A stretch of 64,000 bases of DNA from Leptolyngbya sp. 'hensonii' (GTDB taxonomy: Bacteria > Cyanobacteriota > Cyanobacteriia > GCF-001939115), in NCBI RefSeq assembly GCF_001939115.1, contig NZ_MQTZ01000041.1, positions 186,001 to 250,000 on the forward strand. The letters are read 5' to 3'. The notes under the pieces were generated by a model. It did not search any database. It was not told where the DNA came from and was given only the letters and a program-made list of their open reading frames with translations. The number at the start of each line of letters is the position of its first letter. Position 1 is the first letter of the stretch. Shown here piece by piece: positions 2,441 through 15,493 of this stretch. A program made the position numbers and the translations under genes.

Positions 2441-3307
2441 ATGAAATTTGGACGGTTCAGGGCGTTTGCACTGATTACTGCTAGCAGTATTCTTGCGCTA
2501 CCTTTAATTCTTTCTTCCAAGCTTGCACAATCTCAATCTTCAGTTAGCGTCCACTTAACGATGGGTAATCCCAGCAACGCCATCACCAGCACAAGCTATC
2601 CCAACAACTATTTGATGGTTAAATCCCAGTATGTGCTGTCGTACAACAACAGCAAGCGCATTCCTAACTGGGTGAGCTGGCAACTCAACTCCTCCTGGCT
2701 GGGAAGTGCCCCCAGACAGGATGACTTCCGAGCCGATACCACTCTTCCCAGCTCGTTCTACCGTGTCAGTGGTAGCGACTACAGTGGCAGTGGATTTGAC
2801 AGAGGCCACATGACTCCCAGTGCAGATCGGACCAGCTCGGTAACCAACAACTCGGCCACCTTCCTGATGACAAACATGATTCCGCAAAGCCCTGACAACA
2901 ATCAGGGGGTTTGGGCGAATCTGGAAGACTATGCCCGCACTCTGGTTGGGCAGGGCAAGGAACTGTACATCATCTCCGGTGCCTATGGCAGTTGTGGAAC
3001 CGGGAGTGCCGGATATAAGTGCTCTTTTCCCGCCAAAACAAATCCCAGCTATGCCATCACAGTTCCCAACAGAACCTGGAAAGTGATCGTGGTCCTGGAT
3101 CGGCCTGGCCTAGGGGTGAGTGGAGTCACTACAACTACCCGAGTCATCTCGGTGGATATCCCTAATACTCAGGGGGTTCGCAATGCGAACTGGCGTAGTT
3201 ATCGCGTCAGTGTAGACAGCCTGGAGCAGAAAACTGGATACAACTTCCTCTCGGCTGTGCCTTCCAGCGTTCAGAATGTCATCGAAGCGAAAGTGGATAA
3301 TCAGTAG
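2441..3307 (+). CDS. nucA: Secreted DNA/RNA non-specific endonuclease, NucA type
   Basis: The enzyme is a beta-beta-alpha-metal nuclease that cuts DNA and RNA without sequence specificity. I start it at 2441 because an AGAGGA ribosome-binding site precedes this ATG, and the residues that follow form a signal peptide (about 1-32: basic start, hydrophobic core, A-Q-S cleavage region). An upstream in-frame ATG at 2252 would add 63 residues unlike the family. The signature D-R-G-H lies at residues 120-123, with H123 as the general base. N154 (in P-D-N-N-Q-G-V-W) and E162 (in N-L-E-D) correspond in spacing to the metal ligand and active-site residues of Anabaena NucA. The mature protein is full length for the family. 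It is probably exported for nutrient scavenging or DNA degradation. A hairpin follows the stop codon. Confidence 0.93.
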   Translation: MKFGRFRAFALITASSILALPLILSSKLAQSQSSVSVHLTMGNPSNAITSTSYPNNYLMVKSQYVLSYNNSKRIPNWVSWQLNSSWLGSAPRQDDFRADTTLPSSFYRVSGSDYSGSGFDRGHMTPSADRTSSVTNNSATFLMTNMIPQSPDNNQGVWANLEDYARTLVGQGKELYIISGAYGSCGTGSAGYKCSFPAKTNPSYAITVPNRTWKVIVVLDRPGLGVSGVTTTTRVISVDIPNTQGVRNANWRSYRVSVDSLEQKTGYNFLSAVPSSVQNVIEAKVDNQ

Positions 3308-3334
3308 GTTGTCCTGAGCTTGCTTTGCTAAATC

Positions 3335-3372
3335 TATAGCCCTATCCTTGAGTGCCTTTGGATAGGGCTATA
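3335..3372 (+). terminator. Stable hairpin downstream of nucA
   Basis: A perfect 13-bp inverted repeat (TATAGCCCTATCC at 3335-3347 and its complement at 3360-3372) encloses a 12-base loop, 28 bases after the nuclease stop codon. There is no clear U-tract on the plus strand, so it may be a weak terminator or an RNA-stabilising hairpin. It lies just before the start of the next gene. Confidence 0.55.
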
Positions 3373-3399
3373 CTAACTATTATCTTGAATCAAATTGCA

Positions 3400-3855
3400 A
3401 TGAAATTGATTGTTAGCGTGAAAGTTGCCCTGTGGTCTGTTGCACTATTGGCAGGAATCCCTACAAGCACTGCTGTGGTTCAGGCGCAAGATATTGATCT
3501 GGTTTGTTATGTCCAAACCTCTGGTCAACAGATTTCTGATTTAAGCAAATGGTGTGGGAGCAGTGAGGCGGTATTACGGAGACTTCGGAGCCTTTCGCCA
3601 GCACAGCGAAAAGCTCAGTTTTTGCAAAGTATTTATCGACAATTTCAAAACCACCCAGAAAGAGATGTGCTGGGACAAGCGGATCCAGATGCTCTGATTG
3701 GTAAGGCCAATCAGATCTGCGAGGCGGTCAAAAGTGGCACGTATCAGCCACCAGTTCAAATCAATGAACCAGACGAGGTTCGCAGAATGGCCAATCTGGA
3801 AGAAGCACTGATCGATCAAGTTGTCCGTGAGGGGTTCTGCTTAGGGCTAGATTAG
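3400..3855 (+). CDS. Small exported protein with four cysteines, function unknown
   Basis: The start at 3400 gives a clean signal peptide: M-K-L-I at the start, then a hydrophobic core ending in an A-Q-A-Q type cleavage region near residue 31. The frame is open from 3352, but the extra residues overlap the nucA hairpin and are not signal-like. The mature part (about 120 residues) is mostly helical and has four cysteines, in V-C-Y, W-C-G, I-C-E and F-C-L contexts. These could form two disulfides in the periplasm or outside the cell. I do not recognise a family. It follows nucA on the same strand and is followed by its own hairpin. It could be a cargo or helper of the nuclease locus, but nothing in the sequence shows that. 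Confidence 0.6.
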   Translation: MKLIVSVKVALWSVALLAGIPTSTAVVQAQDIDLVCYVQTSGQQISDLSKWCGSSEAVLRRLRSLSPAQRKAQFLQSIYRQFQNHPERDVLGQADPDALIGKANQICEAVKSGTYQPPVQINEPDEVRRMANLEEALIDQVVREGFCLGLD

Positions 3856-4893: not shown

Positions 4894-6057
4894 ATGGGAT
4901 TAGCCCCAATTTATCGATCGATCTCACTTCTCATTGCCCTGGCCATGGCTTTCTGTCTGGTGGTTCAATCCGCCCTGGCCGTGAATCTGACACAGGTGCA
5001 GTCAGGGGGAAACTCGCCTCTGGACTGGCTTAACCTGAACTGGTCGATCGTCGGTCGGGTGGGGGCGATCGGCGAAGACTGGGAATTTGGCATTGGCCCC
5101 AATAACTTCTCTACCCCCAAGCAGACCCTGCAGTGGACCTGGGTAAATGGGGCAGAAGTTCCCTGGAGCTTACAATGGCGCGATCGGACCCTTACCTTCA
5201 GGATTGGCCGTGAGGCAATCTTCTGGAGTCAGACTGCTCCTGTGCCCCTGATCATGGATAGCTTTTACCTGTTGACCCACGTTGAAGGGGCTGCGGGGTA
5301 CGTCAGCCCGGGAACACTCCTGATTGTGGAGGTGAGACAGGTGAATGGGGCGGCTGTCAAACCTGTAGTCAGCCACAGTGGGACCCCAGGCAGAAAACTG
5401 CGGTTGAGCAAGCGGCTATTTACTGCAGATGCTCCGATCTCCTCCCTGGCTGGAACTATTCGACTGAGCTGGCCTGAGGGAGCCCTGAATCCACAGACCC
5501 AAGGAGCCCGGAGTCGCATTTTTCTGAAGATGGAGGGATTTGATACCAGAACTGCCAGACTCCTCTCCCACTCCAATGTTTTGCGTCCTCGAAGTGCCTC
5601 CTCACCGATGGGAGGTCGAACCCAATCAGACCAGCCTCCTGGTCCTGATCGATTGACAAGCCCATCTGATAAAGTACTTTCCCAGAAAACTGACCCTAAA
5701 ACTGGACCCAAATTGGTTCTATCAGGCAAATTGCATCTGCCATATTCGAGATATGACGTGATCCGAGGTCTTATGGCAATGAAACCGATCAACTTTGACA
5801 AAGATACAACCGCCTGGATTTTTCAGGTTTGGGCTTCTTTTATCATTTCCATGGGGGCAATGGGCCTGAGCTTAGCCTGGTTGCCCATGGACAACTGGAT
5901 GAAAGGACAATTAGGGGTCAGCTTTCTGTTTTCCATCAGCTCCAGTTTTACTCTGGCCAAGACCCTGAGAGATAATCAGGAAGCCCACAAACTAACCTCC
6001 CGCATTGATGAAGCGAGAGTTGAAAAACTGCTGGCGGAACACAACTCCCTGAAGTAG
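4894..6057 (+). CDS. Exported domain fused to a C-terminal YiaA/B two-helix domain
   Basis: The protein has 387 residues. A signal peptide (1-29, ending A-L-A) precedes an extracytoplasmic, beta-rich domain of about 180 residues that includes I-S-R-F/I-F-L-K-type strands. A Ser/Pro/Thr-rich linker (about 220-285) follows, then two membrane helices at about 307-350 within a typical YiaA/YiaB two-helix domain: A-W-I-F-Q-V-W-A-S-F-I-I-S, a turn with M-D-N-W, and S-F-T-L-A-K-T-L-R-D. A charged helix ends the protein. YiaA/B-domain proteins are small inner-membrane proteins of unknown function. The exported N-terminal domain makes this one unusual. It lies 22 bases upstream of another membrane protein gene and probably shares its transcript. 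Confidence 0.7.
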   Translation: MGLAPIYRSISLLIALAMAFCLVVQSALAVNLTQVQSGGNSPLDWLNLNWSIVGRVGAIGEDWEFGIGPNNFSTPKQTLQWTWVNGAEVPWSLQWRDRTLTFRIGREAIFWSQTAPVPLIMDSFYLLTHVEGAAGYVSPGTLLIVEVRQVNGAAVKPVVSHSGTPGRKLRLSKRLFTADAPISSLAGTIRLSWPEGALNPQTQGARSRIFLKMEGFDTRTARLLSHSNVLRPRSASSPMGGRTQSDQPPGPDRLTSPSDKVLSQKTDPKTGPKLVLSGKLHLPYSRYDVIRGLMAMKPINFDKDTTAWIFQVWASFIISMGAMGLSLAWLPMDNWMKGQLGVSFLFSISSSFTLAKTLRDNQEAHKLTSRIDEARVEKLLAEHNSLK

Positions 6058-6079
6058 CCAAATTGGATAATTGAGTCTT

Positions 6080-6652
6080 ATGCATAACGATTTTACAGTA
6101 AAACCCAAATGGTCAAGGGCAGATTGGAGGCTCTGGTGGGCCTGGGTGGCGGTCTGCACCCTGGGTGGGATTATTGCCATCCCATCTGGATTCTTCCTGG
6201 CGGTTTCCTTCGGTGACTACGGGCAACGGGGATTTCCCCTGGGATGGGCGTTAGTCTGGACCATCCATGGGTTAGCCCAGTGGCTGGTGCTCTGTCGCAG
6301 GATTTCCGGGTCAGGTTGGTGGATTGTGGCTACCGCGTTCGGGGGGTCACTGGCCTTACCTATATTGATGGTTCTGAACAGTACTTTCTCTAACTGGATG
6401 TCTGGCTCTATGACTCCATTGGTGTTGATGCCCTGTATCGGTGCTGTAGATGGAGCAATCGTGGGGTTGGCCCAGTCTCTTGTCCTCTGGGCTACTGTGC
6501 CCAACGTGCGGGGTGAGTGGATTTTGTCCTCTACGATCGGAGGGTTGACAGTGCTGCCACCCACCAGTGCGATGATTACGGGCATCACCCTGGTAAAACT
6601 ATTCCAGCCGAAATCCCCCGTTCAACATTCGGCTTGCGGGCATGAGCATTGA
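6080..6652 (+). CDS. Polytopic membrane protein with internal repeat, unknown function
   Basis: About 190 residues, nearly all hydrophobic, with four to five predicted membrane helices. Two segments with the pattern G-L-A-Q-W/S-L-V-L followed by a Trp-rich stretch and a small-residue helix recur around residues 70 and 135, suggesting an internal duplication. This repeat pattern is common in cyanobacterial membrane proteins of unknown function. I use the ATG at 6080; a TTG three codons upstream (6071) is possible. The C-terminus has a short C-G-H-E-H tail. It is co-oriented with the YiaA/B protein upstream and the secretion cluster downstream, but has no motif tying it to either. Confidence 0.6.
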   Translation: MHNDFTVKPKWSRADWRLWWAWVAVCTLGGIIAIPSGFFLAVSFGDYGQRGFPLGWALVWTIHGLAQWLVLCRRISGSGWWIVATAFGGSLALPILMVLNSTFSNWMSGSMTPLVLMPCIGAVDGAIVGLAQSLVLWATVPNVRGEWILSSTIGGLTVLPPTSAMITGITLVKLFQPKSPVQHSACGHEH

Positions 6653-6756
6653 TCCTCCATCCGAGGTTTGGCTGAGAGGGTTCCGCCGAATTACGCTCCT
6701 GCTGAGGGCTGTGGCTGTTATTCAATGGCCAAATCAGCTCGCATGGAGTGATTCTT

Positions 6757-7569
6757 ATGGCACATTGGTTGAGCAAGTCGGTTCGACCGAGCAGAAGCGG
6801 AAGGATAGGGGTAACCCTTTGCCTTTTGATGGCATCCCCGATCGTCTTTTCTAATTCCAGTTCTGCAGCCCCACCGCTCCTGGTGGGACAATTTTCCCTA
6901 CCCGCTGGCAGTCCCCTGGACTCAGTTCTGAACAATCTCCTCAATCAAAGTCAGGCTCTCATCCATCAGACCCAACAGCAGGTGAATACCCTGCTGGGTC
7001 CCGTTCAGCAGGATTTGCAGACAGCGCTTCAGGATGCCTTTGGCTCCATGACCCTGGATGTGAATGCTGCCGAGCACAATATCCTTGATGCCATCGAGGC
7101 TGGAACAGTGCCATCTACCACAGGCATTAATCCAGTGCTAGAGCAGCGCACAACCGCAACCAGAGTCCTGACAGCGCATCACAAAACATCAACCCTCTCC
7201 CAGGAAGCCCAGGCGACTGCTAAACAGACGATCGAAACTACCCAGCAGACCCTGGCCCAGGTGCATGACTGTAACGAGCAGGGCAAAGCGGCTCAATCCA
7301 CGCAGGATGCTTTGAAGTCTCTACTGTGTCAGCAATCTGGCATGGCCTCAATGGACGCGACCCTGATTCCATTGCTGCAAAAAACGATCGAAACCAATGT
7401 GGGGATTGAAACCAATCTTAGTCTGCTGAATGACCAGATTAATGGACAGTTCATAGCTGCAGAACAAAGGCGCATGGCGGAAACCAGTCAATCGCAGTTA
7501 ATCCGTTCCAGTTTCAGCAGCCTGCTCTATTCGCCAAAAACTGTCCCAGCAATGCAACTCCAGAAGTAA
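6757..7569 (+). CDS. VirB5/TrbJ-like exported helical protein, first gene of a type IV secretion-like cluster
   Basis: The ATG at 6757 has GGAG nine bases upstream. A GTG three codons earlier is less likely. An N-terminal signal peptide (about residues 12-36) is followed by a 230-residue, almost purely helical region rich in Gln, Leu and Thr with heptad-like spacing. A single pair of cysteines sits about 22 residues apart (D-C-N-E-Q-G and L-L-C-Q-Q-S). This layout matches VirB5/TrbJ minor pilus proteins, which decorate or help assemble type IV secretion pili. Sequence identity to named members is too low to claim by eye, so the assignment rests on architecture and on its place ahead of VirB6-, VirB8-, VirB9- and VirB10-like genes. 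The next gene starts three bases after the stop. Confidence 0.6.
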   Translation: MAHWLSKSVRPSRSGRIGVTLCLLMASPIVFSNSSSAAPPLLVGQFSLPAGSPLDSVLNNLLNQSQALIHQTQQQVNTLLGPVQQDLQTALQDAFGSMTLDVNAAEHNILDAIEAGTVPSTTGINPVLEQRTTATRVLTAHHKTSTLSQEAQATAKQTIETTQQTLAQVHDCNEQGKAAQSTQDALKSLLCQQSGMASMDATLIPLLQKTIETNVGIETNLSLLNDQINGQFIAAEQRRMAETSQSQLIRSSFSSLLYSPKTVPAMQLQK

Positions 7570-7572
7570 CCC

Positions 7573-8721
7573 ATGTCTCTCACCATACGGGGCCTGTTTT
7601 CTCTTCTGGCTGTTGCTCCAGACTCCCGTTTCAATCATGAACTCAGTCAACAGGCCGCAAAAAATGCTGAAGCGATCGATCAGGTCTGGCGGGCCATGCT
7701 CCTGCCTGCCCAGAATGGCGGTCCAGCTTCCGGGAGTCTCTACCATCTCTTGACATCGCTGGGGTTATATCTGGCGGTTGGCACCCTGATTCTCTTTATC
7801 GTGCAGTGGGCTAGAAACCTGATCAACAACGATCTGGAGCGTCCCCTGACCGATCTGATCTGGCCGATCGTCATCATGGCCCTCCTGGCCCACCAAGGGT
7901 ACTTACTGGCCCAAACGACGATCGGAATCCGCTATGCCATCCACTCGGTGAACAATGGTCTGCTGGAGATTTTGGACCAATCCCTCAAGGTCGAAGCCCG
8001 TCTAGCCGATATGTATAACTATCGGACCTTGGAGGAAGCCATTGACGACATTCGACATGAGTGTGATCCGATCGTGTCCGATATGGAAAAACTGAAGGGC
8101 TGTAAGCAGCAATCTGAGATCAAGCTGAATCAGCTCGCTGATGAATTTAACAGTCTCAACCGCAATGGCCAGGAGCACACCTACTACAACGCCGGACAGC
8201 AAAAAATCGCTGCCGCCAGAATAGCCCTGACCCATACCCCTAACCTGGCAGATCCCATCCCCCGTCCCTCCCCCAGAGATCGGGCATTGGAAAAAATCAG
8301 TGCGTCCCTGCTCAACCTGGGCCAAGCGTTCCAGCGCACCCTGGAAAGCTGCATGGTGATCACGGCTATTCTGGGTCCCCTGGCTGTTGGGGCTTCGCTC
8401 ACCCCCTTTGGCACCAAACCCCTGTTTGCTTGGCTCTCTGCATTTCTGGGCCTGGGATTGGCCAAGTTGAGCTACAACCTGTTGGTGGCGATCGCCATCT
8501 CTTCTTTCTACGTTGCCGGGGAGCAAAACTTCCTATTTCAAGACCTGGTCAACGGTGCCCTCAACCCACTGGTGGCCTTTGGGGTGGCTTCGGGGGGCGG
8601 CAAGGCCATCTTCGAGAGCCTGATCTCGGCCAGCCCCGTCTTGAGGCTGAGAAATTACGGCAATGACCTGGTCCCCAATGCTGTATCAGGTCTATCCAAC
8701 TCAAATCCCAGCTCTAAATAA
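7573..8721 (+). CDS. VirB6/TrbL-like polytopic inner membrane protein
   Basis: This 382-residue protein has a short N-terminal region and two membrane helices at about 57-75 and 95-115. A long charged helical loop follows (about 130-255, with two cysteines in E-C-D and G-C-K contexts). A C-terminal membrane cluster (about 265-350) contains Gly/Ala-rich helices such as I-L-G-P-L-A-V-G-A and F-L-G-L-G-L-A-K. This arrangement, a central soluble loop between groups of membrane helices with a glycine-rich pore-like cluster, is what VirB6/TrbL proteins look like. Those proteins form the inner membrane channel of type IV secretion systems. The gene is packed between the VirB5-like and VirB8-like genes with gaps of 3 and 10 bases. 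The assignment is from topology and synteny. Confidence 0.6.
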   Translation: MSLTIRGLFSLLAVAPDSRFNHELSQQAAKNAEAIDQVWRAMLLPAQNGGPASGSLYHLLTSLGLYLAVGTLILFIVQWARNLINNDLERPLTDLIWPIVIMALLAHQGYLLAQTTIGIRYAIHSVNNGLLEILDQSLKVEARLADMYNYRTLEEAIDDIRHECDPIVSDMEKLKGCKQQSEIKLNQLADEFNSLNRNGQEHTYYNAGQQKIAAARIALTHTPNLADPIPRPSPRDRALEKISASLLNLGQAFQRTLESCMVITAILGPLAVGASLTPFGTKPLFAWLSAFLGLGLAKLSYNLLVAIAISSFYVAGEQNFLFQDLVNGALNPLVAFGVASGGGKAIFESLISASPVLRLRNYGNDLVPNAVSGLSNSNPSSK

Positions 8722-8731
8722 TTGGAGTTCC

Positions 8732-9484
8732 ATGGTCAAATCTATTGCCCTATTACAGCACCAGAGAGAGACAAAAAATTATCTGGCGATCCTGGCGATC
8801 GGGACCCTCTCTTTGCATGTGCTTATCTGCTTGTTCATGCTGTTACTCTATGGAGCCTACTCTCGCTTGAGCCGCAAACCCGTTCCAACCCTGGTTCAAC
8901 TGGCGGACGGGAGGGCGATCAAAACGGCTCCACTAGATGCACAGGAGCGGACTCCCGATACGGTGCGCAATTTTGTTGCCACCACCCTGACCTTGATGTT
9001 GAACTGGTCTGGCAAGCTGCCGCCTCAGACTGGGGAGGAAGCCCGAACACCCAAACTTGATCCAGGGATTCCGATTCATACCCTTCAAGCGGGGGAAAGG
9101 CGCGTGGCAACCGCCACCTGGCAGGCCACCTTTGCCCTTTCCGAGCGCTTCCGTCCAGAGTTTCTCCAAAAGCTGGCCGAACTGACCCCACCGGGCGTCT
9201 TCACCGGAAGCACCCAGGTTGCTCTGGTGCCGCTGGAAATTTCCTATCCGAAGAAAGTGGCCGTTGGGAAATGGAAAATCAAACTGGTGGCTAATTTACT
9301 GGTCTTTAACGCCAGAGACAACGTGGGCAAAGCCATTCCCTTCAACAAGGAAATTTTTGTGCAGGCGATCGATACCCCCAATCCGCCGCCAGAAACCACA
9401 ACTCTGGCCCAGGCCATCTATACGGTACGTCAGGCGGGACTGGAAATCTATGCCATTCGAGACCTGACTCGCGAGAATCTCTAA
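8732..9484 (+). CDS. VirB8/TrbF-like bitopic inner membrane protein
   Basis: The start at 8732 has a GGAG at 8724-8727; an upstream in-frame ATG lies inside the preceding gene. The 250-residue protein has a short cytoplasmic N-terminus, a single strongly hydrophobic helix (about 18-45) and a periplasmic domain of about 190 residues. The domain begins with a helix (D-T-V-R-N-F-V-A-T-T-L-T) and continues with beta strands, including V-A-L-V-P-L-E-I and W-K-I-K-L-V-A-N-L-L-V-F, before ending in a helix and short strand. One N-terminal anchor plus an alpha+beta periplasmic domain matches VirB8/TrbF/TraE, which organise the inner membrane complex. It sits in the usual place between VirB6-like and VirB10-like genes; the next gene begins two bases after its stop. 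Confidence 0.58.
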   Translation: MVKSIALLQHQRETKNYLAILAIGTLSLHVLICLFMLLLYGAYSRLSRKPVPTLVQLADGRAIKTAPLDAQERTPDTVRNFVATTLTLMLNWSGKLPPQTGEEARTPKLDPGIPIHTLQAGERRVATATWQATFALSERFRPEFLQKLAELTPPGVFTGSTQVALVPLEISYPKKVAVGKWKIKLVANLLVFNARDNVGKAIPFNKEIFVQAIDTPNPPPETTTLAQAIYTVRQAGLEIYAIRDLTRENL

Positions 9485-9486
9485 AC

Positions 9487-11055
9487 ATGAATATCCCAAT
9501 GACAGAAACCCAAGCCTTAACCCAGCCTGAGGCCACAGACGGGTCTGAGACGGTGCTGGCTCAAGACCCCGGCTGGAACGAACGTCGAGCAGCGACTATC
9601 CTCGGTTTTGAGGATCAGGAATTATCCACAGCCAATGCCGAAATACCCCTGATCAAAGCCTCGGCAGGGAACGATCTGCCTGACCCTCGCGAACACCCTG
9701 TGAGCCCTTCTTTGGGAAACAACCCAATCGCCAAGGTGGGGCTCGTTGGTGGGGTTTCTCTGGCTGCTTTTATTCTGGTCGGGTTCATCTTCAGTTCGAT
9801 GACGACAATGAGCTTGAAAAGCAGTTCTGTGCAATCGTCTTCAGTGGCAGCAAACTCCAGCGAAATTCTCAACTTCACGGAAAATGCCGCATCAGAGCAA
9901 CAGCAGGCGGTTCTCCTCACAGAATCCGCTTTGAGCAAGCAAGAAAAGCAACTGGCTGCCCTGTCCGACCCCAAATTAACCCGACGGGACAACAAGTCGC
10001 CATCTGAAGCAGAAACGACCCGGCCAGGGACTGTTGCTAAAGGGCCGATCGCCCCGATTGCCCCAGCCCCAGTAACCCTGCCTATCCCGGTGACACCCCT
10101 ACCAGCCCCAGCATCGGTCAGGACTTTACCGAACCCAATTGAGTCTCCCAGTTCAGTGGGGGTACAACCCGTTGATCCAATGCAGCAGTGGCAGACTGCT
10201 TCCACGATCGGCAGTTACACCCCCGGTCCTAACCTGCTGACGGCTGCTCCTCCAACTGCTCCCCATACCGCAACCGTGATCGAGACTCAGCCTTTCCCCA
10301 CTCCCCCAACTGTAGTGATGCCTTCCACGGCAACTCAATCTACAGTGATTCCGGACCAGAGCAACACCATCAATCCGGTTGAGGAAGCAGCCATCCTGAA
10401 CGGACGACCAGTTCGCTTCCTGGCGATCGGAACCCGTGTTGCAGGCCGATTGCTGACCCCGATTCAGCGGGAGGAAGAGGCAATCCCCCAGAATTCGGCT
10501 CAGGCTGCCCCCCTACGGCTGATCGTGCGCCTGGAAGCTCCCTTGCTCAACCCCAGCGGACAGGTGGCTCTACCTGCAGGCACCGACGTGATCGCTGAAG
10601 TCCTTTCTGTGGGGCAGTCCGGGCTGGTGACCATGACGGCGATCTCGATCGTCACGGAGGGGGTGGAATACCACCTACCCGCCCATGCCATTACTATTCG
10701 GGGCCAACAGGGTTATCCGCTGATGGCCCGCCGCTTGAACGACCCTGGGGCCGAAATTGCCGGACTCGATACGGCATTGGTCTTATTTGGTGGGCTGAGC
10801 AAGGTGGGAGAACTGATCAACCGGCCCCAATCCACCACCCTGATTACAGGCCTGGGCAGCACCACCACTACCGTACAAAATTCATCCCCCGATGTGATGG
10901 CGGCTTTGATGCAGGGTGGGTTTGGGGGCCTGACCCAGCAACTGGAAACCCGGAACCAGCAGGCTCTCCAGTCCGCCATGAGCCGATCGGCCCTCTGGCT
11001 ACTGGAGCCAGGAACTCCCGTAGAAGTGTTCGTCAATCAAACCTTACAACTCTAA
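9487..11055 (+). CDS. VirB10/TrbI-like envelope-spanning type IV secretion protein
   Basis: This 522-residue protein has the hallmark VirB10 layout: an acidic cytoplasmic N-terminus (1-82), one membrane helix (84-103), a long Pro/Thr/Ser/Ala-rich periplasmic linker (about 150-300) and a C-terminal beta-barrel domain (about 305-522). The C-terminal domain reads I-G-T-R-V-A-G-R-L-L-T-P, then L-P-A-G-T-D-V-I-A-E-V, then L-F-G-G-L-S-K-V-G and a closing W-L-L-E-P-G-T-P-V-E-V-F-V-N. The last motif is the conserved end of TrbI/VirB10 proteins. VirB10 connects inner and outer membranes and senses ATPase activity. This is the most certain member of the cluster and anchors the interpretation of its neighbours. 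The start may be at 9487 or four codons later at 9499. Confidence 0.82.
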   Translation: MNIPMTETQALTQPEATDGSETVLAQDPGWNERRAATILGFEDQELSTANAEIPLIKASAGNDLPDPREHPVSPSLGNNPIAKVGLVGGVSLAAFILVGFIFSSMTTMSLKSSSVQSSSVAANSSEILNFTENAASEQQQAVLLTESALSKQEKQLAALSDPKLTRRDNKSPSEAETTRPGTVAKGPIAPIAPAPVTLPIPVTPLPAPASVRTLPNPIESPSSVGVQPVDPMQQWQTASTIGSYTPGPNLLTAAPPTAPHTATVIETQPFPTPPTVVMPSTATQSTVIPDQSNTINPVEEAAILNGRPVRFLAIGTRVAGRLLTPIQREEEAIPQNSAQAAPLRLIVRLEAPLLNPSGQVALPAGTDVIAEVLSVGQSGLVTMTAISIVTEGVEYHLPAHAITIRGQQGYPLMARRLNDPGAEIAGLDTALVLFGGLSKVGELINRPQSTTLITGLGSTTTTVQNSSPDVMAALMQGGFGGLTQQLETRNQQALQSAMSRSALWLLEPGTPVEVFVNQTLQL

Positions 11056-11061
11056 GAACTC

Positions 11062-11826
11062 ATGAAATTCCTTACCTCTCTAGCCATGGCCGCTGGCGCG
11101 ATCGTGCTGTTTCACGGGACTGCCTGGGCCCAATCCGCCAGTCGTCAAATTCCGGCCAGCTATGCTCAGGGTCAACATCAAGCCCCCCTACAGGAACTCA
11201 AGCTATGGTCAGGCTATGGCTTGAGCCTAAGTTTCATCCCCACTGGAGAGGTGATCCAGAAGGTCTGGCTGGATAATCCTTCCGCGATCGGGATGGACTT
11301 CGATCAGATTGCTTGCCGGGGCCAGGCAGACTGCCAAACCGGGGCCACGGTGATCAACCTGCGACGAATTACACCCATCTCATTTCCTGCCCTGATTACC
11401 GATAACAACAGCACTACCCTGAAGGTCATCACCCACACCTCCGATAACCAGCGGCACCTCTACCAGTTTCGGGTTGTTCTGAGTAGTGGCACACCCGACT
11501 ATGTCACAGTCGAAATCATGCCTGATCGGGCACAGGAGTCTATGACAACGGCAGCCCAGAAAACCAAAATGCTGACTGACTTGCAGACAGGATTGCAGAT
11601 TGCTGAACGTAAAGGCCAAATTACCCGCCGCCAACCCCTGTGGCAGAAAGTGCAGCAGTTCAAAACGGCAGTCCAGCAGGGGATTTCTCTAGAACAAGCT
11701 GCCCGACAGGTGGGGGTGAGTTTGCCCCTAGTGCATAAACTGGTCGAATTGGGTCAGATAGACTCCAGTCTTGTCCCTATGCAGCATGACTATTCCCCTG
11801 CACCGCATCAGGTGGGAGTGGAGTGA
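11062..11826 (+). CDS. VirB9/TrbG-like periplasmic protein with an HTH-like C-terminus
   Basis: The 254-residue protein has a signal peptide (1-23, A-W-A-Q cleavage). Residues 45-155 form a beta-rich domain with G-Y-G-L-S-L-S-F, V-I-Q-K-V-W-L-D-N-P-S and Y-Q-F-R-V-V-L, matching the N-terminal domain of VirB9/TrbG/TraK proteins. A single cysteine pair (C85, C91) may form a disulfide. In place of the usual C-terminal beta-sandwich that inserts into the outer membrane ring, there is a helical region (about 160-254). Residues 208-231 (G-I-S-L-E-Q-A-A-R-Q-V-G-V-S and on) look like a helix-turn-helix, odd for an exported protein. Its stop overlaps the ATG of the next gene (TGATG), so translation is probably coupled. 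Confidence 0.6.
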   Translation: MKFLTSLAMAAGAIVLFHGTAWAQSASRQIPASYAQGQHQAPLQELKLWSGYGLSLSFIPTGEVIQKVWLDNPSAIGMDFDQIACRGQADCQTGATVINLRRITPISFPALITDNNSTTLKVITHTSDNQRHLYQFRVVLSSGTPDYVTVEIMPDRAQESMTTAAQKTKMLTDLQTGLQIAERKGQITRRQPLWQKVQQFKTAVQQGISLEQAARQVGVSLPLVHKLVELGQIDSSLVPMQHDYSPAPHQVGVE

Positions 11827-13160
11827 TGCGGGTTCCACGCCGTTTCATCTACAGTCTGGTGGCGCTCCTGTCTTTACTGATCGCCCTCGGGTCAGGCCTG
11901 TTAACGGGAAAGACAGACAGTCCCGCGATCGCCCAGCCTGCGCCCCTCTCGATTCCCCTAACCACCTACCGGGGAGCTCCGGTTCTTGACCCAACCCAAT
12001 TCACCTTCGCTAGCCTGCCCCCCTTCGCCACTCGTGGAAGTCTGCAGGCTCCTGGATCCGCGATCGCTGCCCTGGGCTATGACCCATCCATAACCTGGAA
12101 TGCAGGTGATCGTCCGGCAGATATCCTCAAGCTTGGCACCTTTCGGGATGTCTTTGCCCTGGAGCGCTTTAACCTGCAGGCGATCGGTCAATTGATGGGA
12201 CTGGAGTTGTCCAAGCTATCCCTCCAGAGTTTTGAACTGATGTCCTGGCAATCGGTGACTACCCTGGTGGCAGCGATTCCAGGTCTGCAGGATCTACAGG
12301 TGAGTCAGGTGCCCCCGATCGCCGACCTCGCCGGTTCGGCTTATTGGGGAAGCACGATCGGGAATTTAGTGCGACAGGCTCCCCAGCTAGCTCAGCAGAC
12401 TCTGGGCGATCGGCTTAAACTGGAGCACTATGCTCTAGACTCCATTCCAGGATTGGCCCAGACCCCTGTGGGCAATTTCTTCCAGGCTGGTCACAGCCGC
12501 ATTTCCGGAGTGCCAGGGTTAGACCTGGTTCCCTCCAGCCAGTTCCCCATACCGTTGCAGATTCAACCAGGTGCGATCGTGGCCCGCATGGATTTGCCTC
12601 TCCATACCGCCGAAGGTCAGCGTACCAATACCCAGCCCATTAGTGGCAGCGATCGGGCCGGATTCAGGGTTCCCTGCAACCAGTTCTGCTCCCACTTTGA
12701 GACGGCTGAGGGCTGGCAGTGGTTTGCGGGCGATCAGCAACAGGTTCCAGGGGGAGAAGGGGTGTTGGGACAAGCCTTTGGAGGTAAAGAGCCTACGGGC
12801 AGGCTGCCCTATGGTCCGGCGTTTAAGGTGGTGGTGGCCCATGTGAATGAAGCTGCAGGCACGATCGAAACCCAGCTTTTCTTCCGGCTGTGCAGTCGAG
12901 GCTGGATAGATTTAGGCTGCACCCCCTATAGCATTGGTCCCTTGCCCTTTCTCCCCTATCGGGAGTCTGACCTGATTTTTCTGGGAGTCCAGCAACCCGG
13001 ACCGATTGCCGCCGAATCCAGTACACCGACCCAGTTCATCTCCCCATCCATCTCACCCCAGACTCCCTCCGGCCCCGATCCAGGTCGGACTGTCCCCTTA
13101 CCAGAAGCCAATCATACTGCCGGATCGATCGACCCCACCTTTGGCTTCGTGCAGCCATGA
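11826..13160 (+). CDS. Large exported protein of the type IV-like cluster, function unknown
   Basis: The ATG at 11826 overlaps the preceding stop by one base; a GTG one codon earlier is also possible. An N-terminal hydrophobic segment (about 9-30) is a signal peptide or anchor and is followed by about 410 exported residues. The middle part (about 90-250) is helical, with repeated L-Q/L-S-L motifs. The C-terminal part (about 255-395) is beta-rich and holds four cysteines in two close groups (V-P-C-N-Q-F-C and L-C-S-R-G-W-I-D-L-G-C). The tail is Pro/Ser-rich. I recognise no family. Its position, coupled between the VirB9-like gene and the next one, makes a structural or outer-membrane role in the same machine likely. 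A VirB7-like small lipoprotein is not visible, so this protein may take over an outer membrane role. Confidence 0.62.
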   Translation: MRVPRRFIYSLVALLSLLIALGSGLLTGKTDSPAIAQPAPLSIPLTTYRGAPVLDPTQFTFASLPPFATRGSLQAPGSAIAALGYDPSITWNAGDRPADILKLGTFRDVFALERFNLQAIGQLMGLELSKLSLQSFELMSWQSVTTLVAAIPGLQDLQVSQVPPIADLAGSAYWGSTIGNLVRQAPQLAQQTLGDRLKLEHYALDSIPGLAQTPVGNFFQAGHSRISGVPGLDLVPSSQFPIPLQIQPGAIVARMDLPLHTAEGQRTNTQPISGSDRAGFRVPCNQFCSHFETAEGWQWFAGDQQQVPGGEGVLGQAFGGKEPTGRLPYGPAFKVVVAHVNEAAGTIETQLFFRLCSRGWIDLGCTPYSIGPLPFLPYRESDLIFLGVQQPGPIAAESSTPTQFISPSISPQTPSGPDPGRTVPLPEANHTAGSIDPTFGFVQP

Positions 13161-13735
13161 ACCGAAATCTTCTGGGATTTGCAGGATGCCTGATTATGGT
13201 AGCCACGATCACCAGCCTGCTGATCCTGGGCAGGACCGATCGACCCTTATCAACCATCCCCGCCAGTCACCCAGTCCCGCCCATCCCAACAGCCATCCTG
13301 TCCTGCCTACCAGCACTGGAGCATCAGGAACTCAAGGCCGTCCTGCCATCCGGTGACACCACCTACTACGCGATCGGGGGCGATCGGTCCCACACCTATG
13401 ATCTGGTTCTGATTGCCCTGAATCGAGGCCGATGTTATGTCCTGCGACCCGCCAATCAACGCTTACCGGTGACATTTCTGAACGCTTTTGTGTCCCAGGA
13501 ACTGGCCCAACAACTCTGGCTCCAGATCTACCGGCGCACAATGCACCAACTGGGGGGACGATCGGCCTTTCAACAGCGCCTCGATCGCACAGCCACCCAA
13601 CTACCAGCCGGAAAACGGGGATATCTGGCCCCTGAACAGGGCTGGGCCTTGCAGCAACTGGGCATCTCCATTCCCGATCGGCTGCACATCATCACCGCAA
13701 CCGACTATCTGAGCATCCAGGAAAACCCCAAATAA
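13157..13735 (+). CDS. Bitopic or exported protein of the type IV-like cluster, function unknown
   Basis: The ATG at 13157 overlaps the upstream stop (ATGA), indicating coupled translation. The 192-residue protein has an N-terminal hydrophobic helix (about 6-25), a Pro-rich spacer and a compact alpha+beta domain (about 50-190). Two cysteines (L-S-C-L and G-R-C-Y) may pair. The domain contains Y-Y-A-I-G-G-D-R-S-H-T-Y-D-L-V-L-I and a helix V-S-Q-E-L-A-Q-Q-L-W-L-Q-I. The G-G-R-S and K-R-G-Y elements are not catalytic motifs known to me. Lytic transglycosylase (VirB1) residues are not evident, so it is not an obvious VirB1. It lies directly before the coupling ATPase gene. Confidence 0.58.
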   Translation: MNRNLLGFAGCLIMVATITSLLILGRTDRPLSTIPASHPVPPIPTAILSCLPALEHQELKAVLPSGDTTYYAIGGDRSHTYDLVLIALNRGRCYVLRPANQRLPVTFLNAFVSQELAQQLWLQIYRRTMHQLGGRSAFQQRLDRTATQLPAGKRGYLAPEQGWALQQLGISIPDRLHIITATDYLSIQENPK

Positions 13736-13750
13736 CGTACAGGTGTTGCC

Positions 13751-13785
13751 TGCAACGCCTCTTCTATCCCCATGCAACGCCTCTT
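13751..13785 (+). repeat. Short direct repeat ahead of the coupling-protein gene
   Basis: TGCAACGCCTCTT occurs twice, at 13751-13763 and 13773-13785, with nine bases between copies; the second copy covers the first codons of the 13772 start. This may be a recent small duplication that created the upstream ATG. It supports considering the next ATG (13802) as the true start. Confidence 0.6.
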
Positions 13786-15493
13786 TCCCAATGACTACCC
13801 TATGCAGGCATTAACCCTCTCCCTCTCTCCTCCCACCAACCCAGGCCCCCTGCCGCAGATCCTGCTCTCTCCCAGTGGCCTTACCCTGCTGACCTGCCTG
13901 ATCGGAGTCGGGCTACTCTCCAGCTTGGGACAACCCTCCCACCGGAAAAACCGACTGGCCACCTCCCAGTTTGCCGGATCCAGAGAAAAAGCGATCGCCC
14001 GCCAAAAAGCCCACCGCCAGATGCGCGACCGCAAACGCAATGCCGTCACCTTTTACATTGGCAAGCCCAAAGTGAAGACAGAACTGCGATCGGGCCAGAT
14101 CACCGCCAAAATCATCCGGGATACCCAGACCTTCTACCTCCCCGATGCCCAACGGGGCATTGCGGTCTGTGGCGGCCCCGGTTCCGGTAAGACCTTTTCA
14201 GTGATTGACCCCTGCGTTCGATCAGTCGTAGATCAGGGCTTCCCCCTCATCCTCTATGACTTCAAGTATCCGACCCAATCAGAGCGCCTCGCAGGCTACG
14301 CTACCCAGGCCGGGTACGAGGTGCGAGTTTTTGCTCCCGGTTTTCCAGAGTCAGAGGTCTGCAACCCCCTGGATTTTCTGCGGGACGACAATGATGCCCT
14401 GATGGCCCGCCAGATCGCAACTGTCTTGAACAAAAATTTTCAGCTTTCCGCCCAGGCATCAGAGGATTCCTTTTTTTCCGATGCCGGGGATCAATTGATT
14501 GAAGCCCTGCTGATGCTGACCAAAGGGATGAAATACGCCGACATGATCACGATGCAGGGATTCTTGAGTCTGGATGGGCTGACCGATCGTCTCCTCCAAG
14601 CAAACCTCAATCCCTGGGTACGGGCCAGTTTTGGTCAGCTCTTCTCCGTAGCCAAATCAGAGAAAACCCTGTCCGGCATCACCGGCACGGCCTTCAAGGT
14701 GATCAACCGCATGGTTAAACCGGGCATTGTGGACGCATTTTGCGGCCCATCCACGATTCCCCTGGACCTACAGGGAAAACAACTGCTGATCCTGGGCATG
14801 GACCGGGAGCGGCGGGATGTACTGGGTCCCCTCCTGGCAACCGTGCTGCACCTGATCGTCACCCGCAACGTCGTCAAGCGCCGGACCGATCCGCTGGTGG
14901 TGGCTCTGGATGAGCTGCCGACCCTGTACCTACCGAACCTGCACCAGTGGCTGAATGAAAACCGGGAGGATGGACTGGCCTGCATTCTGGGCTTTCAAAA
15001 CATTGTGCAATTGGAAAAAGCTTACGGCAAAGAACTGGCCCGAGCTGTACTGGGCGGATGTGCCACGAAGGCCATCTTTAATCCCCAGGAGCCGGATTCG
15101 GCCCAGATGTTTTCGACCTATTTGGGAGACGAAGAGATTCGCTATCACCAGAAGTCCCGTAATCTGGGCAGCGGCAAAGCCAGTTACACCATTTCTGAGC
15201 AGGAGAAAACCCGCAAGCTATTTGAGCCCAGCCAGTTCCTGAAGCTGCGAAGTGGGCGCTGCATCCTAATCAGCCCAGCTTTTGAGAATAACCAGGAGGC
15301 TTCCCTACCCATGCAGGTGACAGTCAAAGTTCCCAAGGCTGACCTGGAGGCAATGGCTACCAGTCAATCGGCCTGGGATACCCTGAAAGCGACCTTGATT
15401 CATCGGAGTGCTCAGGTCAATTACACCCGTCAGGATATCCAGAATCGTTACGAGGACATCGATCGACGGTTTCCACCCAGAAAAGGGAATTAA
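13772..15493 (+). CDS. VirD4/TraG-type type IV coupling ATPase
   Basis: This 573-residue ATPase has an N-terminal hydrophobic segment (about 30-52) followed by a basic region and a RecA-like motor. Walker A is G-G-P-G-S-G-K-T at 134-141, with a second conserved L-Y-D-F-K-Y-P at 161-167 as in VirD4/TraG/TraD. Walker B is L-V-V-A-L-D-E-L-P-T-L at 375-385, followed by a Q409-containing motif III (L-G-F-Q-N). Coupling proteins recruit substrates, DNA-relaxase or protein, to a type IV channel in the inner membrane. Length is normal for a small VirD4. The start could be 13772 or 13802, and neither has a strong ribosome-binding site. It ends the cluster; tpiA follows after 69 bases. No relaxase accompanies it in the window. 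Confidence 0.88.
   Translation: MQRLFPNDYPMQALTLSLSPPTNPGPLPQILLSPSGLTLLTCLIGVGLLSSLGQPSHRKNRLATSQFAGSREKAIARQKAHRQMRDRKRNAVTFYIGKPKVKTELRSGQITAKIIRDTQTFYLPDAQRGIAVCGGPGSGKTFSVIDPCVRSVVDQGFPLILYDFKYPTQSERLAGYATQAGYEVRVFAPGFPESEVCNPLDFLRDDNDALMARQIATVLNKNFQLSAQASEDSFFSDAGDQLIEALLMLTKGMKYADMITMQGFLSLDGLTDRLLQANLNPWVRASFGQLFSVAKSEKTLSGITGTAFKVINRMVKPGIVDAFCGPSTIPLDLQGKQLLILGMDRERRDVLGPLLATVLHLIVTRNVVKRRTDPLVVALDELPTLYLPNLHQWLNENREDGLACILGFQNIVQLEKAYGKELARAVLGGCATKAIFNPQEPDSAQMFSTYLGDEEIRYHQKSRNLGSGKASYTISEQEKTRKLFEPSQFLKLRSGRCILISPAFENNQEASLPMQVTVKVPKADLEAMATSQSAWDTLKATLIHRSAQVNYTRQDIQNRYEDIDRRFPPRKGN

What the first reader, a model, noticed from the sequence alone, without database searches (positions are those of the whole stretch)
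6757..15493. Stable chromosomal type IV secretion-like core without VirB4, VirB11 or a relaxase, next to tpiA
Eight packed genes include a clear VirB10-like protein and a VirD4-like ATPase plus VirB5-, VirB6-, VirB8- and VirB9-like proteins by architecture and order. The two ATPases that usually energise assembly and any relaxase are absent, and the cluster abuts a housekeeping gene with no integrase or att-like repeats. Two large exported proteins with cysteine pairs (11826, 13157) have no recognised family. This could be a cyanobacterial secretion or DNA-transfer machine powered by the VirD4 protein alone or by an unlinked VirB4.
Basis: partly seen in the sequence, partly recalled or inferred. 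Interest (0 to 1): 0.78.

Follow-up and report, generated by a model that had tools for sequence, protein, structure and literature searches.

The report
Cyanobacterial secretion machine split in two
A set of eight genes beside a housekeeping gene is half of a conjugation-type secretion machine of cyanobacteria whose motor and pilus genes sit elsewhere on the same chromosome piece, a layout also seen in the early-branching Gloeobacter group, where it is kept without any known DNA-transfer enzyme in some genomes.

Summary
The eight genes (6748-15493) are real, intact and packed, and form a type IV secretion (T4SS) core of the cyanobacterial kind (MPF_C): VirB5-like, VirB6, VirB8, VirB10, VirB9, an exported four-cysteine protein (F), G and VirD4. 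On cyanobacterial plasmids the same genes follow VirB2-VirB3-VirB4. Here that trio is not lost: it lies on the same contig, about 187 kb away. The two blocks are complementary and make one full set. So the machine need not be driven by VirD4 alone; an unlinked VirB4 is available. A second complete system with its own relaxase lies on another contig. No relaxase of the three families searched lies on the window's contig. All five Gloeobacterales genomes examined have such a system scattered over three places (B2-B3-B4 / B5-B6 / B8-B10-B9-F-VirD4), under purifying selection in the four compared; three of the five lack all three relaxase families. Most likely this is a domesticated, relaxase-less, VirD4-coupled T4SS that exports protein, or a helper for resident mobilizable elements. 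The substrate is inferred. The place beside tpiA is not conserved. New variant of a known kind.

The parts
6748..7569 (+). A, exported VirB5-like protein (273 aa)
   Evidence: First gene of the block, in the place of the VirB5-like gene of the plasmid operons; one weak tblastn match to the G011 homologue (26%, E 9e-7). No Pfam family over cut-off. VirB5 name is by position, inferred.
7573..8721 (+). B, VirB6-like polytopic membrane protein (382 aa)
   Evidence: Orthologous to VirB6-place genes of T4SS operons; profile A4 finds exactly two places in the own genome, this one and C43. No Pfam family over cut-off.
8663..9484 (+). C, VirB8-like, N-terminal membrane helix plus periplasmic domain (273 aa)
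   Evidence: 31-56% identity to the VirB8-place genes of 17 other systems. No Pfam hit.
9487..11055 (+). D, VirB10/TrbI (522 aa)
   Evidence: PF03743, E 1.2e-11, over cut-off.
11062..11826 (+). E, VirB9 (254 aa): beta domain 27-153 plus C-terminal helices
   Evidence: AlphaFold mean pLDDT 80; VIA-align: the eight best rows are T4SS core entries (VirB9/TrwF, Dot/Icm, CagX, F plasmid, Xanthomonas), Z 9.8-11.5, next row 6.4. Foldseek's own ranking put Ig-like adhesins first.
11823..13160 (+). F, exported protein (445 aa) with four conserved cysteines (285, 289, 357, 366); constant part of cyanobacterial T4SS operons
   Evidence: tblastn matches in 105 plasmid records; C285/C289 invariant, C357/C366 in 90% or more of 21 rows. 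Nodosilinea-type relatives carry a C-terminal M23 peptidase, absent here. Model confident only at about 90-245; no PDB match at E <= 0.001.
13157..13735 (+). G, small exported protein (192 aa)
   Evidence: Homologues (31-37%) in the same place in Nodosilinea-type systems and in the C43 system. No family.
13772..15493 (+). H, VirD4 coupling ATPase (573 aa), Walker A GGPGSGKT present
   Evidence: PF10412 4e-28, PF12696 1.9e-23; TrwB as a weak PDB match; 60-63% identity to Nodosilinea-type VirD4.

Best explanation
The window holds the core-and-coupling half (VirB5, B6, B8, B10, B9, F, G, VirD4) of a chromosomal T4SS of the cyanobacterial MPF_C class. The other half (VirB2 pilin, VirB3, VirB4 ATPase) is encoded 187 kb away on the same contig. 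The parts meet in the envelope: VirB4 with VirB3, VirB6 and VirB8 builds the inner-membrane part and the VirB2/VirB5 pilus, VirB9 and VirB10 with F span the periplasm, and VirD4 brings substrates. Shown: gene content, orthology, complementarity, intact ORFs, VirB9 fold, no relaxase of the three families on the contig. Inferred: that the halves work together, and that the machine has been domesticated from a conjugation system and exports protein effectors or serves as transfer helper for resident mobilizable elements. The confidence given is for the split, VirB4-in-trans T4SS; for protein export as its job I would give about 0.45.
For: Same gene order as plasmid operons, which start with VirB2-VirB3-VirB4. 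The own genome has two VirB4 of this family: C41:3470-6223, preceded by VirB2 (2464-3144) and VirB3 (3157-3543), and the C43 one, which belongs to a full second system. VirB6: two copies, one each. VirB4 identity: weak TraC and VirB4 profile matches and 62-64% to linked VirB4s. In two separate trees (VirB4; VirB8+VirB10+VirD4) the same five systems are nearest by path to the chromosomal parts, whereas the C43 parts fall with another clade; sisterhood with the C43 copy is rejected (AU p 0.0049 and 1e-8). Composition fits the chromosome. Five of five Gloeobacterales genomes have a scattered system with the same break after VirB4; dN/dS 0.07-0.36 in 18 of 18 comparisons; three of five lack all three relaxase families searched.
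Against: No experiment. No close relative of the window's genome was available (the others are kin only at class level), so conservation or selection on this very locus could not be tested. Deep branches are poorly resolved; the VirB4 tree does not reject a place within the C43 group (p 0.148). VirB2-B3-B4 lie about 2.4 kb from a contig end with a transposase-like ORF (by eye), so the draft assembly matters. Patchy distribution (80 of 242 genomes for VirD4) fits mobile ancestry. Relaxase families outside the three searched were not tested.
Confidence: 0.8

Rival explanations
1. A decaying remnant of an integrated conjugative plasmid or ICE, broken in two by rearrangement and on its way out.
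For: The closest relatives sit in elements with large helicase/methyltransferase proteins downstream (a stretch like MobV in one of them), which are not found here; F lacks the M23 domain its Nodosilinea-type relatives carry; a transposase-like ORF ends the contig near VirB2.
Against: All eleven ORFs are intact, many with overlapping stops and starts; nothing of the core is missing between the two blocks; composition is native; the same split is kept under purifying selection in Gloeobacterales.
Confidence: 0.25
2. A helper conjugation machine: it moves resident mobilizable elements in trans, for example the C55 replicon, which has a TrwC (MOBF) relaxase and a coupling-type ATPase but no VirB4 of this family.
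For: C55 has TrwC and a VirD4-like protein at C55:25895; VirB4 is found only at C41 and C43. In-trans mobilization by relaxase-less T4SS is mentioned in PMC3158045 (passages).
Against: The C43 system is complete and has its own relaxase, so it could do the same; three Gloeobacterales genomes have no relaxase of the families searched yet keep the system.
Confidence: 0.3
3. One reading: a reduced machine powered by VirD4 alone.
For: Only that no VirB4 is in the cluster itself.
Against: A VirB4 of the right family, with VirB2 and VirB3, is on the same contig.
Confidence: 0.04

Closest known systems
MPF_C conjugation systems of cyanobacterial plasmids (Trichormus variabilis pA, L. boryana, Pseudanabaena galeata, Allocoleopsis pMIC7113.01)
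   Same: Same proteins in the same order; VirD4 49-53% to the first three, C41 VirB4 62% to Allocoleopsis.
   Different: There one operon, in pA with MobV and a relaxase-domain gene nearby. Here two blocks 187 kb apart on a chromosomal contig, no relaxase of three families found on the contig, F without a peptidase tail.
Scattered T4SS of Gloeobacterales (seen here)
   Same: VirB2-B3-B4 as a separate block; core block ends F-VirD4; no relaxase of three families in three of five genomes.
   Different: There B5-B6 are separate too (three places); VirB4 43-44% and VirD4 48-51% to the window's; different flanks.
Rickettsiales rvh T4SS (PMC2653234, passages read)
   Same: Chromosomal, split into virB3-virB4-virB6 and virB8-virB9-virB10-virB11-virD4 clusters.
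   Different: Has VirB11, host-bound bacteria, duplicated VirB4, VirB6, VirB8, VirB9; another MPF class (recalled).
MOBless T4SS (PMC3158045, passages read)
   Same: Chromosomal T4SS without a co-localised relaxase; cyanobacteria are named among the holders.
   Different: That survey clusters genes within 60 ORFs, so a system split over 187 kb to 3 Mb would appear as separate pieces.

Membership tests
MPF_C-class T4SS (cyanobacterial) | VirB4 ATPase of the cyanobacterial family | tested here: met
   C41:3470-6223, 62-64% to linked plasmid and chromosomal VirB4s; met in trans, not in the cluster.
MPF_C-class T4SS (cyanobacterial) | VirB10 and VirD4 | tested here: met
   Pfam over cut-off.
MPF_C-class T4SS (cyanobacterial) | VirB9 | tested here: met
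   Fold match Z 9.8-11.5 to eight T4SS core entries.
MPF_C-class T4SS (cyanobacterial) | VirB6, VirB8 and F in the order B6-B8-B10-B9-F-D4 | tested here: met
   tblastn against plasmid operons.
MPF_C-class T4SS (cyanobacterial) | Contiguity with VirB2-B3-B4 (usual, not strictly defining) | tested here: not met
   Split, 187 kb apart.
Conjugative element (ICE or plasmid) | Linked relaxase | tested here: not met
   PF03432 only on C43, PF01076 none (control W01 rings), PF08751 only on C55. Other relaxase families not tested.
Conjugative element (ICE or plasmid) | Integrase and att repeats at the cluster | tested here: not met
   None in ORFs 4894-15490, no tRNA or outstanding repeat.
Protein-secretion T4SS | Demonstrated protein substrate | not testable with these tools
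   Needs experiment.
T4SS with VirB11 | VirB11 ATPase | not tested
   None annotated in four plasmid T4SS stretches; no search was run in the own genome.

The most novel reading that the evidence does not exclude
Cyanobacteria domesticated an MPF_C conjugation machine into a chromosomal, relaxase-less secretion system that is encoded as separate islets, in parallel with Rickettsiales; in Gloeobacterales it is vertically inherited. It would be a third MPF class used for protein secretion.
Probability: 0.4. Interest if true: 0.75.

Novelty: new variant of a known kind. Interest (0 to 1): 0.52.

Why it matters
A 2016 survey states that only two MPF types, I and T, are known to include protein-secretion T4SS (PMC4793230, passages read). 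A relaxase-less, scattered, selected MPF_C system in free-living phototrophs, including Gloeobacter, would add a third and give a clean test case: in G012 and G046 one such system was found, and PMC8600333 Table 1 (passage read) lists two Gloeobacter genomes with no plasmids. It also shows that tools which require clustered genes can miss or mis-split such systems.

Tried and rejected
VirB4 by PF03135 in the own genome: no match, which misled, since the cyanobacterial VirB4 does not reach that model; a protein query found it. PDB sequence searches with VirB9, VirB8 and VirB6 profiles gave nothing useful, nor did VirB10 or VirB4. The F model: no PDB match at E <= 0.001; the VIA second look gave only Z <= 2.9 over residues 1-42; its C-terminal half is low-confidence, so no fold is claimed. 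VirB9 was not visible in Foldseek's own top 50, only in the VIA second look. The downstream helicase/methyltransferase of Nodosilinea-type elements was sought in the own genome: only partial distant matches on C55 and C44. First trees held a wrong reading frame for G093 VirD4 and are superseded, which still give weak deep support; some VirB10 rows are short and Allocoleopsis lacks VirD4. Paper searches (listings and the passages named above only) listed nothing on a split MPF_C system or on a Gloeobacter T4SS; this covers only the open-licence library.

Census limits: of 148 VirD4 rows I dropped 42 weak ones (under about 200 bits); of 129 VirB4 rows I dropped 25 (under about 285 bits); at most 5 (VirD4) and 3 (VirB4) candidates per genome had been scored. 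Of the 106 kept VirD4 places 63 have a kept VirB4 within 25 kb, 8 have one on the same contig but farther, 25 only on another contig (mostly drafts), 10 none in the genome. The row totals were counted by hand.
Full report
What is there. The window has eight intact, tightly packed genes on the + strand, 6748-15493. Pfam names two: VirB10 (PF03743) and VirD4 (PF10412, PF02534, PF12696). The other six reach no family cut-off in Pfam or NCBIfam. The two genes before them (4894 choice-of-anchor W/YiaAB; 6071 membrane protein) and tpiA after them had no match in 120 related loci, 76 of which have a VirD4 hit, so there is no sign that they are part of the system and the neighbourhood is not conserved.

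What it belongs to. tblastn of VirD4 and F against plasmids gave 800 and 105 records; the best are cyanobacterial. Annotated plasmid stretches show one common order: VirB2 - VirB3 - VirB4 - VirB5 - VirB6 - VirB8 - VirB10 - VirB9 - F - (further exported protein) - VirD4. The window's genes map on the part from VirB5 to VirD4. The VirB9 assignment was tested by fold: an AlphaFold model from a 17-row alignment (mean pLDDT 80) matches eight T4SS core entries (TrwF/VirB9, F plasmid, Dot/Icm, Cag, Xanthomonas) at Z 9.8-11.5, with the next row at 6.4; Foldseek alone ranked Ig-like folds first. The names VirB2, VirB3, VirB5, VirB6 and VirB8 rest on order, size and architecture, and the class name MPF_C follows PMC8600333 (passages); PMC3158045 describes the cyanobacterial VirB4 clade (passages).

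Where VirB4 is. A search with PF03135 found none, but the plasmid VirB4 protein finds two places: C41:3476-6187 (62%) and C43:273173-275917 (56%). C41 is the window's own contig (544,817 bases; window = C41:186001-250000). The C41 VirB4 is preceded by a VirB2-like (2464-3144) and a VirB3-like gene (3157-3543) and followed, convergently, by a VanW-like gene (the VanW, MFS and FtsX names of neighbours are by eye). It keeps Walker-type motifs (read) and shows weak TraC and VirB4 profile matches. The C43 VirB4 belongs to a complete second system, VirB2 to VirD4, with a PF03432 relaxase about 4 kb away. VirB6 likewise has exactly two places, the window and C43. Thus the C41 trio and the window block are complementary halves, about 187 kb apart.

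Do the halves belong together? In the VirB4 tree and in the VirB8+VirB10+VirD4 tree the five nearest systems to the chromosomal parts by path are the same (G093, Allocoleopsis, G011, G202, Nodosilinea 06152), while C43 falls with the Leptolyngbya/Pseudanabaena plasmid clade in both. A sister relation with the C43 copies is rejected (p 0.0049 and 1e-8); membership in the C43 clade is rejected at p 0.042 on the core side but not on the VirB4 side (p 0.148). Deep support is weak. I read this as agreement without proof; the exact complementarity is the stronger argument.

How unusual is the split? In 242 genomes of the class, VirD4 of this family is in 80 and VirB4 in 78. Of 106 VirD4 places kept, 63 have VirB4 within 25 kb and 8 have it farther off on the same contig. 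Among the latter are Gloeobacterales: G012 (1.53 Mb apart on a 4,659,019-base single contig; Gloeobacter violaceus by size, recalled), G046 (2.99 Mb), G032 (211 kb). In G071 (a contig of the same length as one of Aphanocapsa lilacina HA4352-LM1) and G082 (same for Gloeobacterales ES-bin-313) the pieces are on different contigs. In all five VirB2-B3-B4 form one block and VirB8-B10-(B9)-F-VirD4 another, and VirB6 lies elsewhere, with a VirB5-like gene before it where I looked closely (L156, L158). The five are one clade in the trees (three of them in 83, 84), which fits vertical descent. dN/dS was 0.068-0.355 in 18 of 18 comparisons of six genes over three pairs among G012, G032, G071 and G046 (one aligned VirB8 stretch of G032 held a stop, not followed up). 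G012, G046 and G082 have no match to PF03432, PF01076 or PF08751; G071 has two pieces of PF01076, G032 four PF03432 places.

How it probably works. By established knowledge of T4SS, VirB4 with VirB3, VirB6 and VirB8 energises assembly and pilus formation from VirB2 and VirB5, VirB9/VirB10 form the channel through the periplasm, and VirD4 selects substrates. Splitting the genes does not stop this, as Rickettsiales suggest (PMC2653234, passages). With VirD4 kept and no relaxase of the searched families on the contig, protein export is the simplest reading, and helper conjugation the main rival (C55 has a MOBF relaxase and a coupling-type protein but no VirB4 of this family). F carries four conserved cysteines, and the L. 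boryana operon has a DsbA-annotated gene two places after F, so F is probably disulfide-bonded; in relatives it ends in an M23 peptidase or a part annotated GH19, which suggests a wall-remodelling role that the window's F lacks.

Verdict. What remains of interest is a relaxase-less, split MPF_C machine with a parallel, selected case in Gloeobacterales.

Noticed in passing
L119-L123 (G190, G211, G128 C1, G106, G086): Blocks VirB2-B3-B4-B5-B6-B8-B8'-B10-B9 with a second VirB8 gene and no F or VirD4 after them; one search lists no VirD4 of this family in G190, G106 and G086. A VirD4-less T4SS with its VirB4 62-63% like the window genome's; perhaps a pilus or DNA-uptake device.
   Followed up: partly
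G000:C43, about 257000-277000 (L031, L066, L131): Second complete T4SS of another clade with its own relaxase; CRISPR-type effector genes seem to lie before the relaxase (by eye).
   Followed up: partly
G000:C55 (L032, L140): TrwC (MOBF) relaxase and VirD4-like protein with a ParA-like gene (by eye) but no VirB4 of this family: looks mobilizable only.
   Followed up: partly
window 4894-6057: Protein with a choice-of-anchor W domain fused to a YiaA/B two-helix domain, just upstream of the cluster.
   Followed up: no
L125, L127, L129: In Gloeobacterales a conserved protein of about 400-470 aa lies before the VirB2-B3-B4 block; in L125 and L127 also a lysozyme-like peptidoglycan-binding protein (by eye), a VirB1 candidate.
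   Followed up: no
L154:9627-12344: G093 VirB4 carries an in-frame stop close to its C terminus.
   Followed up: no
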